Positions 20,754-24,426 of a DNA stretch of 34,463 bases are shown piece by piece. Position 1 is the first letter of the stretch. Every line of letters starts with the position of its first letter. Position numbers and translations under genes: made by a program. Below the pieces are notes generated by a model. It was not told where the DNA came from. It worked only from the letters and a program-made list of their open reading frames with translations, and ran no database searches. Origin of the DNA: Alphaproteobacteria bacterium (lineage in GTDB: Bacteria; Pseudomonadota; Alphaproteobacteria; M2410); NCBI GenBank assembly GCA_030614785.1, contig JAUWTJ010000044.1, positions 1 through 34,463 of the forward strand, read 5' to 3'.

Positions 20754-21747
20754 TCAGGACAGACGTCAGGCGGAGCATAGTACCGTCATCATGGAGCTTA
20801 ATGCCGCCATTGTAACGGTGCGCGATGACACACCGCTCGTCCTTGTCGTGCGAGAAAAACAACCTGGCTCGAACGAGACAAGCGAAACGACCTTCGGACT
20901 TCCCTATGGTCCCTTTGAGCCGATCCGTGACCGAACCCTTGAACTGGGAATGCGGCGCTGGGTGGAAGAACAGACCGAGCTGGAAATGGGATACTTCGAA
21001 CAGCTCTATACATTTGGCGACCGGGGGCGGCATTCCGGACCGGATGACCAGGACCGCTTTGTCTCGGTTGGCTATCTTGCTCTTACTGATCGCGCTACAG
21101 ACAGCGCTCTGCCCGATGCCGTATGGCGATCCTGGTATGATTTTTTTCCATGGGAAGATCATCGCGGAGGGTTTCCGGAGATGGTTGATGACGTCATCCG
21201 CCCCGCCCTTCAGACCTGGGCCGCAGCAGCAGAGTCAGATCCCCTGCGCAGTCAAAGGCGTGACCGCGTGAAGCTTTGCTTTGGGGCAAAGAATGTTGCG
21301 TGGGATGATGAAAAGATACTCGAGCGCTATGAACTTCTCTACGAAGCTGATCTTGTGACGGAAGCCTCTCGCGATGAAGATTTGCCGCAGCAGGGCGAAA
21401 GTCACGCCATTGGCATGGCTATGCGCTTTGACCACAGACGGATTCTGGCAACCGCGATGGGCAGGCTCCGGGGAAAGCTCAAATATCGTCCGGTTATTTT
21501 TGAACTTATGCTGGACACTTTCACCCTGCTGGAACTGCAGCGGACCATTGAGGCTATTGCCGGCGTCCATTTACACAAGCAGAACTTCAGGCGTCTTGTG
21601 GCAACAAGTGGACTGGTGGAAAACACCGGTACAATCAGTGCACAAACCATAGGCAGACCCGCTCAGCTTTTCCGCTTTCGGCGTGAAGTCTTGCAGGAAC
21701 GTGTCGCTCCTGGCGTCCGCATGCCGTCACCCCGAGGTCGGCGTTAG
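20746..21747 (+). CDS. nadQ: Nudix/winged-helix NAD biosynthesis regulator (NadQ/NrtR type)
   Basis: The start is GTG 20746, with GAAGGAGGA at 20733-20741 (333 residues); a longer frame opens upstream but lies inside the HD gene. Residues about 16-160 form a Nudix-like domain with a degraded Nudix box: after GPFEPI the conserved Glu is Arg, and the REUxEExG core reads RRWVEEQT, so hydrolysis is unlikely and ligand sensing more so. Residues 250-315 form a winged helix (LMLDTFTLLELQRTIEAI, HLHKQNFRRLVATSGLVE, GRPAQLFRF). Regulators with this layout control NAD synthesis: NrtR, and in alphaproteobacteria the longer NadQ-type. nadA and nadC lie just downstream behind two dyads that suit such a repressor. 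The exact NadQ name rests on family and context. Confidence 0.82.
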   Translation: MADQDRRQAEHSTVIMELNAAIVTVRDDTPLVLVVREKQPGSNETSETTFGLPYGPFEPIRDRTLELGMRRWVEEQTELEMGYFEQLYTFGDRGRHSGPDDQDRFVSVGYLALTDRATDSALPDAVWRSWYDFFPWEDHRGGFPEMVDDVIRPALQTWAAAAESDPLRSQRRDRVKLCFGAKNVAWDDEKILERYELLYEADLVTEASRDEDLPQQGESHAIGMAMRFDHRRILATAMGRLRGKLKYRPVIFELMLDTFTLLELQRTIEAIAGVHLHKQNFRRLVATSGLVENTGTISAQTIGRPAQLFRFRREVLQERVAPGVRMPSPRGRR

Positions 21748-22085
21748 TCGTTCCCGATTGGGAACTCTACAAAGCCAAGTCCCTGCATCCTTTCAAGGTC
21801 ACCTGATTCAATTGAGAGAATATGCACCCGACCTGTCGCTGCGCCGCACATGGCAACCCGCTTGCGCCCGTCATGTCCCGTGCGGGCACTGAAAACGTCA
21901 ATATCAGCGGCTTCGACCTCCGCGACGCTTTCCGCCAGCGTGATTGCCGGACCGTCGCCGCATTGTACCGAGCCATCAGCGCGTGACACCTCCACAAGAT
22001 CTGCGCCAGCGGGCGGCGGTGTTTCAGCGCTGGCTATGGAAAGCAGAACGATACACATTGCGATACACGTGAAAAATATCCGCAT
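21744..22085 (-). CDS. Small predicted exported protein, function unknown
   Basis: I start at ATG 22085 (113 residues), which gives a clean Sec signal (MRIFFTCIAMCIVLLSIASA, cleavage before ETPP) and an AGGA about 5 bp upstream. A longer frame upstream has no such quality. After a Pro-rich start, the mature part has two Cys (VQCGDGPAI and VAMCGAATG) that could pair in the periplasm, with beta-like segments AADIDVFSA and VHILSIES. I recognise no family. The stop overlaps the end of nadQ by 4 bp on the opposite strand. Confidence 0.6.
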   Translation of the reverse strand: MRIFFTCIAMCIVLLSIASAETPPPAGADLVEVSRADGSVQCGDGPAITLAESVAEVEAADIDVFSARTGHDGRKRVAMCGAATGRVHILSIESGDLERMQGLGFVEFPIGND

Positions 22086-22267
22086 AATATCCTCATCACC
22101 CTTGTTGGAACCCCGTTTCCCCGGGTTCAGTTCCTTGATACAAGCCCTTCGACACCGCCATTTGGACGGCCAATTCGGGCGGGATTTGGGCGCAATTGGG
22201 GTGATTTGAGAACTGTGACGGTCGGACACAACGACGCATCAAGCTGCGCCGCCAATAATTTTCGTAT

Positions 22268-22306
22268 TTTTTTCTTGACCTGAGTAATGCTCAAACATAG
22301 CATAAG
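22268..22306 (+). promoter_or_regulatory. Upstream copy (A) of a 39-bp nadA operator/promoter module
   Basis: Copy A has a T-tract, TTGACC (22275-22280), then ATGCTCA and AGCATA arms (dyad region 22286-22304), then AAG. It matches copy B at 22334-22372 at 30 of 39 positions, with all arm bases kept and the centre diverged. TTGACC, 17 bp and TAGCAT could serve as a promoter. Confidence 0.65.
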
Positions 22307-22311
22307 TCCAT

Positions 22312-22339
22312 CCTGCCCCGATTTCGGGACGGGTTTTTT
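22312..22339 (+). terminator. Intrinsic terminator/attenuator between the two operator copies
   Basis: CCTGCCCCG (22312-22320), loop ATTT, and CGGGACGGG (22325-22333) form a 9-bp stem with one mismatch and one G-U pair, followed directly by six T (22334-22339). It is oriented toward nadA and lies 42 bp before its ATG. It could stop transcripts starting at the upstream copy A or read-through from nadQ. Confidence 0.65.
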
Positions 22340-22372
22340 CCTGACCTGATATATGCTCACTGTGAGCATAAG
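22334..22372 (+). promoter_or_regulatory. nadA: Downstream copy (B) with a perfect 19-bp dyad, nadA operator
   Basis: TATGCTCAC-T-GTGAGCATA (22352-22370) is a perfect dyad with 9-bp arms around one T. It is preceded by CTGACC (22341-22346) and followed at once by the nadA Shine-Dalgarno AAGGAGA. The likely binder is the NadQ/NrtR-type regulator encoded 0.6 kb upstream. Occupancy would also cover the leader next to the ribosome binding site. Confidence 0.7.
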
Positions 22373-22381
22373 GAGACAGCA

Positions 22382-23521
22382 ATGAACGAGAACACAACGA
22401 GCCTGGAGTATACCGAAGAGGTCGCCCGGGAAATGGCGCCGCTTTATGATCACGTCAAAGACGTTGTCCCGGCAGTTGAATGGCCCTTCTTCGCTCCCAT
22501 GATCCGGGAGATCAATCGGCTGAAGCAGGAAAAGAATGCCGTCATTCTTGCTCATAACTACCAGACACCGGAGATTTTCCACTGTGTCGCCGACTATGTT
22601 GGTGACAGCCTGCAGCTCGCGCTTCAGGCCTCCAGAACCGATGCCAATGTCATCGTTCAGGCCGGCGTCCACTTTATGGCATAAACTTCAAAGCTGCTGT
22701 CACCTGAAAAGACCGTCCTGATACCAAGCATGGAAGCGGGATGTTCACTCGCTTCGTCCATCACAGGTGAAGATGTTCGTCTCATCAAGGCTAAATATCC
22801 CGGCGTCCCTGTCGTCACCTACGTCAACACCTCTGCCGACGTGAAGGCTGAAAGCGATATTTGTTGCACCTCATCCAACGCTATTGAAGTTGTTGAAAGC
22901 CTTGGCGTCGACCGGGTCATCATGATCCCGGATGAATATCTGGCGCGCAATGTCGCCGCCGAAACCAACGTGGAAGTGATCGCCTGGAAAGGCGCCTGTG
23001 AAGTTCACGAACGATTTACTGCTGATGAAATGCGCGCCTATAAAGCCAATGACCCAAATATCGTCATTCTGGCTCACCCGGAATGTCCGCCTGATGTCAT
23101 GCAGGAAGTTGATTTTGCGGGCTCGACGGCGGCGATGATTTCTTACGTCAAGGATCGCAAACCGGCCCGCGTCGTCATGGTCACCGAATGTTCCATGAGC
23201 GACAATGTCGCGGTTGAATGTCCGGAAGTTCATTTTGAGCGGCCCTGCAACATTTGCCCGCACATGAAACGGATCACGCTGGAAAATATTCTGCACACGC
23301 TGCAAACCGGTGAGCATGAAGTCATCATCGATGAGGATATGGCGCGGCGCGCCCGGGTTTCGGTCCAGCGCATGGTTGACCTCAAGACACCGGGCGTGAA
23401 CCGATACAATGCAAGCAAGCCGATTGACGTTGTTATCGAAAACAAGGGTTCTATCAGACCGACCGTGCGGTCCAAAGTCTCCAACAGGCCAAGCGAGGCC
23501 GCGATGGCGGCCGGCGATTAA
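22382..23521 (+). pseudogene. nadA: Quinolinate synthase nadA with an in-frame TAA at codon 101
   Basis: The frame from ATG 22382 to TAA 23521 has 380 codons, a normal NadA size. It is unbroken except for TAA at 22682-22684. The context is GVHFMA[27 protein letters not shown]. NadA proteins have Glu here (HFMAETAK), and GAA to TAA is a single change. No frameshift is present. All family marks are intact in the second part: the three conserved cysteines expected to hold the 4Fe-4S cluster are at codons 121 (MEAGCS), 206 (KGACEVH) and 292 (NICPHMK), with VTECSMSDN between. NadA condenses iminoaspartate with dihydroxyacetone phosphate to give quinolinate. A protein starting at Met 22730 would lack the first of three subdomains. 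The cause may be a sequence error or real loss. nadC follows after 20 bp. Confidence 0.85.
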
Positions 23522-23541: not shown

Positions 23542-24426
23542 ATGTCTGACAGTCCAAAACTGCCACACCTGGCAACTCTCCTTCTTGAGGGCCCGGTCCG
23601 CATTGCATTGCTCGAAGACCTTGGCCGCGCCGGTGATATCACATCCCAAAGCGTGGTTCCGGAAGATGCCGTTGCGCGTGTTTCCCTGACGGCCCGCGAA
23701 GCCGGAATTGTTGCCGGCCTCGACGTTGCTCGCACGGCCTTTCGCCTTGTCGATACCTCACTCAAAATTGCGGTCATCCGTGAAGATGGCACAAGGGTAG
23801 GCCCGGGCGATGACATTGCCCTGATCGAAGGGCCCGCCCGATCCATTTTGACGGCTGAGAGAGTTGCGCTCAATTTCATGGGGCACCTCAGCGGCGTTGC
23901 CACCGCGACCCGCAGCCTCGTCGATGCTGTGGAAGGGACCGGCGCGCGCATCTGCTGCACGCGCAAGACCACGCCAGGGCTTCGCGCCTTTGAGAAACAT
24001 GCCGTTCTTGCAGGCGGCGGCGTGAACCATCGCTTTGGCCTCGACGACGCGATCCTCATCAAGGACAATCACATTGCTGCAGCAGGCGGCATAACCAAAG
24101 CTCTCAGCGCCGCTCAGCAAGCGGCGGGGCACATGACCGCCATCGAAATCGAGGTCGATACGCTGGAACAGCTGGATGAGGCGCTGGCTGCCGGTGCACG
24201 CATCATTCTTCTCGATAACATGACACCGCCTGAACTTGAGGCCGCAGTAAAAAAAGCCGTGGGCAAGGCAGCGCTTGAAGCCTCGGGGAAAATCAATCTG
24301 GAGACTGTCCGCGCCGTTGCCGAAACCGGCGTCGATTACATTTCCTCCGGCTTTATTACCCACAGCGCCCCAACTCTCGATATTGGCCTCGACTTCGATG
24401 CTCTGGTCCCCGGAGCCGGAGATTGA
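23542..24426 (+). CDS. nadC: Nicotinate-nucleotide pyrophosphorylase (quinolinate phosphoribosyltransferase)
   Basis: A protein of 294 residues, full length for NadC. Diagnostic blocks are LLEDLGRAGDITSQSVVP near the start, LNFMGHLSGVATATRSLV, and the active-site stretch CTRKTTPGLRAFEKHAVLAGGGVNHRFGLDDAILIKDNHI. The last carries the Arg, Lys and His residues that bind quinolinate and PRPP. IEIEVDTLEQLDEAL and LLDNM complete the barrel. The enzyme turns quinolinate and PRPP into nicotinate mononucleotide. The start lies 20 bp after nadA, so the two form an operon. nadB (aspartate oxidase), often between them in other species, is not here. If nadA is really dead, nadC loses its internal substrate supply. 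Confidence 0.95.
   Translation: MSDSPKLPHLATLLLEGPVRIALLEDLGRAGDITSQSVVPEDAVARVSLTAREAGIVAGLDVARTAFRLVDTSLKIAVIREDGTRVGPGDDIALIEGPARSILTAERVALNFMGHLSGVATATRSLVDAVEGTGARICCTRKTTPGLRAFEKHAVLAGGGVNHRFGLDDAILIKDNHIAAAGGITKALSAAQQAAGHMTAIEIEVDTLEQLDEALAAGARIILLDNMTPPELEAAVKKAVGKAALEASGKINLETVRAVAETGVDYISSGFITHSAPTLDIGLDFDALVPGAGD

What the first reader, a model, noticed from the sequence alone, without database searches (positions are those of the whole stretch)
22268..22372. Duplicated operator/promoter module with a terminator between the copies, upstream of nadA
Two 39-bp copies (22268-22306 and 22334-22372; 30 of 39 identical) each have a T-tract, a TGACC box and ATGCTCA/AGCATA arms. Copy B is a perfect 19-bp dyad next to the ribosome binding site. 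A stem-loop with T6 sits between them, and its T-tract is part of copy B. This could give two promoters, one attenuated, under one repressor, so nadA output would depend on repressor occupancy and read-through.
Basis: partly seen in the sequence, partly recalled or inferred. Interest (0 to 1): 0.6.

Follow-up and report, generated by a model that had tools for sequence, protein, structure and literature searches.

The report
Repressor site locked behind nadA terminator
In front of an NAD-synthesis gene sit a promoter carrying one binding site for the NAD regulator NadQ, then an RNA "stop" hairpin, then a second NadQ site a fixed ~15 bases past the stop signal; this layout recurs across many Alphaproteobacteria, which suggests that the bound repressor acts as a barrier that switches on a premature stop of transcription.

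Summary
Two 39-bp copies (30/39 identical) lie upstream of nadA, with a hairpin and T6 between them. Copy B is a perfect match to the published NadQ operator. nadQ itself is in the window (full-length match to solved NadQ). Copy A is a degenerate NadQ site overlapping a sigma70-like promoter.

Relatives sharpen the picture. In 64 distinct alphaproteobacterial leaders (nearly all nadA) with NadQ sites at least 50 bp apart, the interval usually holds a hairpin plus T-tract (51/64). The T-tract sits at a fixed place, starting 16-19 nt before the downstream operator, while its distance to the upstream site varies (SD 0.8 versus 7.1 nt). Hairpin arms differ between species but stay complementary. 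A search of 385 genomes gave 26 hits and none with the reversed pattern; 24 precede nadA. The upstream site often carries a promoter, the downstream one almost never, so "two promoters" is unlikely; the 39-bp likeness is peculiar to this genome.

Best reading: NadQ on A blocks initiation; NadQ on B stalls escaped polymerase on the T-tract, so the hairpin terminates it. The anatomy is shown; the coupling is inferred. I found no description of it in the papers held. This genome's nadA also carries an in-frame stop codon.

The parts
20791..21747 (+). nadQ, the NAD-biosynthesis repressor gene (COG4111; NrtR-type winged helix at the C-terminus)
   Evidence: PDB 7q91 'NADQ transcription factor' residues 12-315, E 2e-80; PF21906 NrtR_WHD. 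The start codon chosen is inferred.
22275..22280 (+). -35 element TTGACC of the promoter at copy A
   Evidence: promoter scan, spacer 17, 9/12; a -35 of >=5/6 at this place in 30/64 leaders
22287..22303 (+). Operator A: degenerate NadQ site ATGCTCAAACATAGCAT (2 mismatches), whose right arm TAGCAT (22298-22303) is the -10 element
   Evidence: TAGCAT in 32/64 relatives at this site
22312..22333 (+). Terminator-like stem-loop CCTGCCCCGATTTCGGGACGGG
   Evidence: -11.9 kcal/mol; hairpin at this place in 52/64 leaders with covarying arms
22334..22339 (+). T-tract (T6) after the stem, starting 19 nt before operator B
   Evidence: T-tract at -16..-19 before operator B, SD 0.83 nt, in 55/64 leaders by an unbiased scan
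22352..22370 (+). Operator B: perfect NadQ dyad TATGCTCACTGTGAGCATA (core 22353-22369)
   Evidence: 0 mismatches to the core of the published consensus ttATRCTCannntGAGYATaa (PMC5343134); unique exact match in the genome
22370..22375 (+). Ribosome binding site AAGGAG
   Evidence: read directly
22382..23521 (+). nadA (quinolinate synthase), interrupted by in-frame TAA at 22682-22684
   Evidence: PF02445 on both parts; the stop replaces a Glu found in 91/91 relatives
23542..24426 (+). nadC (quinolinate phosphoribosyltransferase), downstream in the presumed operon
   Evidence: TIGR00078, 333 bits, above cut-off

Best explanation
The element is the NadQ-controlled leader of nadA. Transcription starts at one promoter whose -10 lies inside the weaker operator A, so NadQ on A blocks initiation. 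Polymerase that escapes makes a ~25-30 nt RNA, forms the hairpin, and reaches the T-tract just when its front would meet NadQ on the strong operator B. NadQ on B therefore acts as a roadblock that holds polymerase on the T-tract, so that an otherwise leaky terminator releases it; when NadQ leaves, polymerase reads through into nadA-nadC. Shown here: the operators, the promoter-like sequence at A rather than B, the covarying hairpin, and the fixed T-tract-to-operator distance across Alphaproteobacteria. Inferred: NadQ occupancy of both sites, the start site, the stall, and that the stall raises termination.
For: Operator B fits the published NadQ consensus exactly, and nadQ is in the window. 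59 of 85 nadA leaders hold two NadQ-like sites versus 1 of 1700 Markov controls. 26 genome-wide pattern hits in 385 genomes, 0 for the reversed pattern, 24 of them directly before nadA. Hairpin (<= -6 kcal/mol) plus T-tract in 51/64; arms complementary within but not between leaders (0/5000 permutations). T-tract to B distance SD 0.83 nt, to A SD 7.1 nt; 55/64 in register versus 10% of shuffles; hairpin 3' side, T-tract and B align without gaps. Hairpin present whether or not nadQ lies just upstream, so it is not nadQ's own terminator. Hairpin + T-rich element + roadblock protein site 15 bp downstream is the experimentally shown layout of Pol I terminators (PMC12366685). Repressors acting as roadblocks are established in bacteria (PMC10310618, PMC4132739).
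Against: No experiment. The fixed distance is what the model predicts but does not prove coupling. About a fifth of leaders lack a canonical hairpin (e.g. L013, L070 in the same family), although their T-tract remains. Leaders with sites 26-35 bp apart have no hairpin. In LacI work a roadblock very close to a promoter was read through more than expected (PMC4132739). Bases -12..-7 before B are also conserved and weakly complementary to the 5' leader (31/5000, 69/5000 after thinning), which the model does not explain. The exact stall distance of bacterial polymerase against NadQ is unknown.
Confidence: 0.5

Rival explanations
1. Plain double repression plus an independent terminator: NadQ on A and B represses initiation and elongation, while the hairpin is a constitutive, NadQ-independent attenuator or insulator that lowers basal or read-through transcription into nadA.
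For: The hairpin looks like an ordinary intrinsic terminator; it occurs where different genes or nadQ lie upstream.
Against: An insulator for upstream read-through would be expected before promoter A, not after it, and there is no reason for its T-tract to be locked to B with SD 0.83 nt while its distance from A varies by SD 7.1 nt.
Confidence: 0.25
2. DNA looping or cooperative binding: NadQ dimers on A and B interact; the hairpin is a 5' mRNA stabiliser or incidental.
For: Two sites of unequal strength; a hairpin near the 5' end of an mRNA can protect it from decay (general knowledge).
Against: A-B spacing ranges from 52 to 93 bp without clear helical phasing (R 0.21, n 64). A stabilising hairpin needs no T-tract, yet the T-tract is conserved even where the hairpin is weak.
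Confidence: 0.12
3. Two promoters, one attenuated, each with its own operator.
For: In this genome copy B has CTGACC 17 bp before GAGCAT and a T-tract upstream, like copy A.
Against: The promoter scan finds only the A promoter; a -35 of >=5/6 occurs at B in 2/64 leaders against 30/64 at A; a start at B would remove most of the ribosome site.
Confidence: 0.06
4. RNA-level attenuator: the conserved bases after the T-tract pair with the 5' leader or the hairpin's 3' arm and switch termination in response to a ligand or protein.
For: Weak excess complementarity leader:box (31/5000; 69/5000 after thinning) and 3' arm:box (217/5000).
Against: Only ~25-30 nt of RNA precede termination (median 29), too little for a sensing domain or leader peptide; no Rfam match near threshold.
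Confidence: 0.07

Closest known systems
NadQ regulon (COG4111; PMC5343134, 2016; Minazzato et al. 2022, not held, known only from citations)
   Same: Same regulator family, same operator consensus, same target (nadA with nadC).
   Different: The passages read describe operators and target genes only; the fixed hairpin/T-tract/second-operator arrangement is not mentioned there. RegPrecise or the 2022 paper may list both sites.
Transcriptional roadblock by bacterial repressors (LacI, PurR, CcpA, CodY; PMC10310618, PMC4132739)
   Same: A repressor bound downstream of the start would block elongating polymerase.
   Different: In those cases removal of stalled polymerase is credited mainly to Mfd; here an intrinsic hairpin and T-tract lie at about the expected stall position.
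RNA polymerase I terminators (Reb1/Nsi1/TTF1; Nielsen and Zenkin 2025, PMC12366685)
   Same: RNA hairpin, T-rich element and a roadblock protein site 15 bp downstream, in the same order.
   Different: Eukaryotic, at the end of the rRNA gene, constitutive; here bacterial, ~30 nt from the start, with a metabolically controlled repressor, and the hairpin adjoins the T-tract so no deep backtracking is needed.
Classical attenuators (trp-type, riboswitch terminators)
   Same: Conditional terminator in a biosynthetic operon's leader.
   Different: No leader peptide, aptamer or clear anti-terminator; the proposed control is a DNA-bound protein downstream.

Membership tests
NadQ regulon / NadQ operator | Operator matching ttATRCTCannntGAGYATaa | tested here: met
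   B exact at core positions, A with 2 mismatches
NadQ regulon / NadQ operator | NadQ (COG4111) encoded in the genome, often next to nadABC | tested here: met
   PDB 7q91 match E 2e-80 over residues 12-315, ~0.6 kb upstream
NadQ regulon / NadQ operator | NadQ binds the site | not testable with these tools
   needs purified protein
Intrinsic terminator | G+C-rich stem directly followed by a T-tract, conserved by compensatory change | tested here: met
   one mismatch in the stem in this genome, not reported by the simple scan
Intrinsic terminator | RNA release at the T-tract | not testable with these tools
   needs in vitro transcription or RNA 3'-end data
Repressor roadblock | Operator lies downstream of the start site | tested here: inconclusive
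   B core begins 50 bp past the end of the predicted -10 of A; the start is predicted, not mapped
Repressor roadblock | Polymerase stalls upstream of the bound repressor | not testable with these tools
   geometry only (PMC12366685)
Tandem promoters | A -35/-10 pair at each operator | tested here: not met
   A 30/64, B 2/64; one promoter in the window region
NrtR regulon | Regulator with ADP-ribose-type Nudix domain plus NrtR winged helix | tested here: not met
   NCBIfam ADPR-responsive repressor equivalog far below cut-off (73.5 versus 400 bits); only the winged helix is shared; best structure is NadQ

The most novel reading that the evidence does not exclude
A widespread bacterial 'repressor-gated intrinsic terminator': a metabolic repressor bound at a fixed distance past the T-tract turns a leaky, promoter-proximal terminator on, so one protein controls both initiation (site A) and termination (site B) of NAD synthesis across Alphaproteobacteria.
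Probability: 0.42. Interest if true: 0.78.

Novelty: new variant of a known kind. Interest (0 to 1): 0.6.

Why it matters
It would link two textbook mechanisms, repressor roadblocks and intrinsic termination, in one compact module of a central cofactor pathway, and would be a bacterial counterpart of the hairpin + T-tract + roadblock terminators of RNA polymerase I. It predicts that a repressor's distance from a T-tract can be read from sequence and used to find other such modules, and it offers a small (<110 bp) system to test whether roadblocks trigger intrinsic termination.

Tried and rejected
Rfam search of the leader: nothing near threshold. Pfam/NCBIfam NrtR assignment: only the winged helix fits, NadQ is the right family. 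Terminator of an upstream gene: rejected because the hairpin is present with and without nadQ just upstream (10/17 versus 41/46 with stable hairpin) and lies after promoter A. Helical phasing of A and B: no clear signal. Anti-terminator pairing 3' arm:box: 217/5000, weak; leader:box 31/5000, unexplained. My first T-run scan was centred on -17, so it was repeated without that bias; the unbiased most stable hairpin often extends past the T-tract (3' end at -21..-14 in only 27/64), which I cannot explain. Literature: no paper found on a NadQ leader, attenuator or tandem operator, nor on a bacterial repressor-gated intrinsic terminator; subscription papers, including the NadQ structure paper, are not held.

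Full report
WHAT WAS CLAIMED AND WHETHER IT IS THERE. The two 39-bp copies (22268-22306, 22334-22372; 30/39, 66 bp apart) come out of a de novo repeat search. Copy B is a perfect 19-bp dyad (22352-22370) directly before AAGGAG and nadA. A stem-loop (22312-22333, -11.9 kcal/mol) followed by T6 lies between the dyads; the T6 is the first part of copy B. Taken alone the hairpin is no better than many shuffles (z -1.33) and it was not reported by the simple terminator scan, so relatives had to decide.

THE REGULATOR. The gene 0.6 kb upstream on the same strand encodes NadQ: residues 12-315 match PDB 7q91 'NADQ transcription factor' (E 2e-80) and the C-terminus is the NrtR-type winged helix. The NrtR-type equivalog model is far below its cut-off. 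The published NadQ consensus is ttATRCTCannntGAGYATaa (PMC5343134): B fits without mismatch in the core, A with two mismatches. B is the only exact match in the 3.86-Mb genome.

COMPARISON OF LEADERS. From 80 named loci and genome relatives, 85 nadA leaders had 300 bp of upstream DNA; 59 hold at least two NadQ-like sites (<= 3 mismatches), against 1 of 1700 Markov sequences. Two classes appear: sites 26-35 bp apart without room for a hairpin, and sites mostly >= 50 bp apart. A whole-genome pattern search (two sites, 28-58 free bases between) in 385 alphaproteobacterial genomes gave 26 hits in 26 genomes and none for the reversed pattern; 24 of the 26 lie directly before nadA, one sits at a contig end beside nadQ, and one (L127) has no nadA next to it. 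A few of these genomes overlap with the first set; duplicates were removed.

THE INTERVAL. In 64 distinct leaders of the wide class, 52 have a hairpin of <= -6 kcal/mol ending at the T-tract, 59 have a T-tract of at least 4 T in 6, and 51 have both. The stems are of many different sequences (29 different outermost five-pair stems among 52), and 5' and 3' arms fit each other within a leader but not between leaders (mean -11.5 versus -6.5 kcal/mol; 0 of 5000 permutations; thinned set likewise). Without any assumption about position, the most T-rich hexamer between the sites starts 15-20 nt before operator B in 55/64 leaders versus 10% of shuffles; within these its distance to B has SD 0.83 nt while its distance to A has SD 7.1 nt. 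The last paired base is at -19.06 +/- 0.63 (this figure is conditioned on adjacency to the T-tract). Sixteen diverse leaders align without gaps from the hairpin's 3' side through operator B. So hairpin, T-tract and operator B form one rigid unit, and operator A with its promoter is a separate, movable unit.

PROMOTER. A -35 of >= 5/6 at the right spacing occurs at A in 30/64 and at B in 2/64; TAGCAT replaces GAGCAT at A in 32/64 and at B in none. Site A thus trades operator quality for a -10 element. In this genome copy B has CTGACC, which is the source of the 39-bp likeness: flanks agree at 15/19 positions here, versus a mean of 5.6 and a next best of 10 in other leaders. This looks like a lineage-specific homogenisation (inference), not the conserved design.

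MECHANISM. Shown: operators, promoter-like sequence at A, covarying hairpin, fixed register. From general knowledge of bacterial termination: RNA is released about 7-9 nt after the stem, i.e. about -12 to -10 before B. From PMC12366685: roadblocked Pol I halts in a T-rich stretch 15 bp upstream of the roadblock site, and an RNA hairpin then releases it rapidly; the same paper gives ~8 nt as the bacterial hairpin-to-3'-end distance. From my own memory, not checked in a held paper: EcoRI-type roadblocks stop E. coli polymerase about 14 bp before their site. These numbers roughly coincide with the T-tract here. Inference: NadQ at B holds polymerase where the hairpin can act. In LacI work Mfd removes most stalled polymerases, but short promoter-roadblock distances behave differently and the authors discuss retained sigma hindering Mfd (PMC4132739); a built-in hairpin would supply release in that situation. 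Physiology (inferred): when NAD supply is sufficient NadQ closes A and makes leaked polymerases terminate; when NadQ leaves, both locks open.

ALTERNATIVES. An upstream gene's terminator is disfavoured by position and by its presence regardless of the neighbour. An independent attenuator/insulator remains possible but does not explain the locked distance to B. Looping is not supported by phasing (R 0.21). An RNA switch is disfavoured by the short RNA (median 29 nt to the T-tract), although the conserved box at -12..-7 and its weak complementarity to the leader remain unexplained.

NOVELTY. NadQ and its operator are known; repressor roadblocks are known; hairpin-plus-roadblock termination is known for Pol I. 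I found no paper that joins a bacterial repressor's operator to an intrinsic terminator at fixed distance, nor any on the NadQ leader, with the caveat that the library lacks most subscription papers, including the 2022 NadQ paper. I rate it a new variant of a known kind.

CAVEAT ON THIS GENOME. nadA has an in-frame TAA (22682-22684) where 91/91 relatives have Glu; it is the only nadA found. The rest of the gene, nadC, nadQ and the leader are intact, so this is a recent mutation or a sequence error. The leader should be tested in a relative with an intact gene.

Noticed in passing
22682-22684: In-frame TAA inside nadA at a Glu codon conserved in 91/91 relatives (GAG/GAA); the only nadA copy found in the genome. 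Recent pseudogene or sequence error.
   Followed up: partly
G000:C142:15841-16107 (L136) and L109: No NadB was found (the family hit L109 is a succinate dehydrogenase flavoprotein by its sequence), but an aspartate dehydrogenase (PF01958) is present and could supply iminoaspartate; it has no close NadQ site.
   Followed up: partly
-12..-7 before the downstream operator in 43 leaders (window about 22341-22346): A second conserved box (C-A/G-G-G/A-C-C) between T-tract and operator, weakly complementary to the 5' leader and to the hairpin's 3' arm; role unknown.
   Followed up: partly
leaders L065, L072, L074, L039, L057, L067, L073, L100, L108 (26-28 bp) and L080, L087, L095, L097, L098, L101 (34-35 bp): A compact class (Rhizobium, Martelella, Chelativorans, Beijerinckia types) has the two NadQ sites 26-28 or 34-35 bp apart, with no room for a hairpin, so the terminator has been lost or gained with spacing.
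   Followed up: no
L110, L117, L013, L070: Leaders with a T-rich stretch between the sites but no hairpin before it; in L110 and L117 complementary arms flank the T-tract instead, which places it in the loop.
   Followed up: no
L127 about 1500-2088: An intact leader without nadA behind it; an integrase-like ORF runs across it on the other strand and a guaA-like gene follows. Possible insertion or misassembly.
   Followed up: no
21744-22229 (-): A divergent small ORF with a signal-peptide-like start (probably ATG near 22084) lies between nadQ and the nadA leader; no Pfam or NCBIfam match.
   Followed up: no
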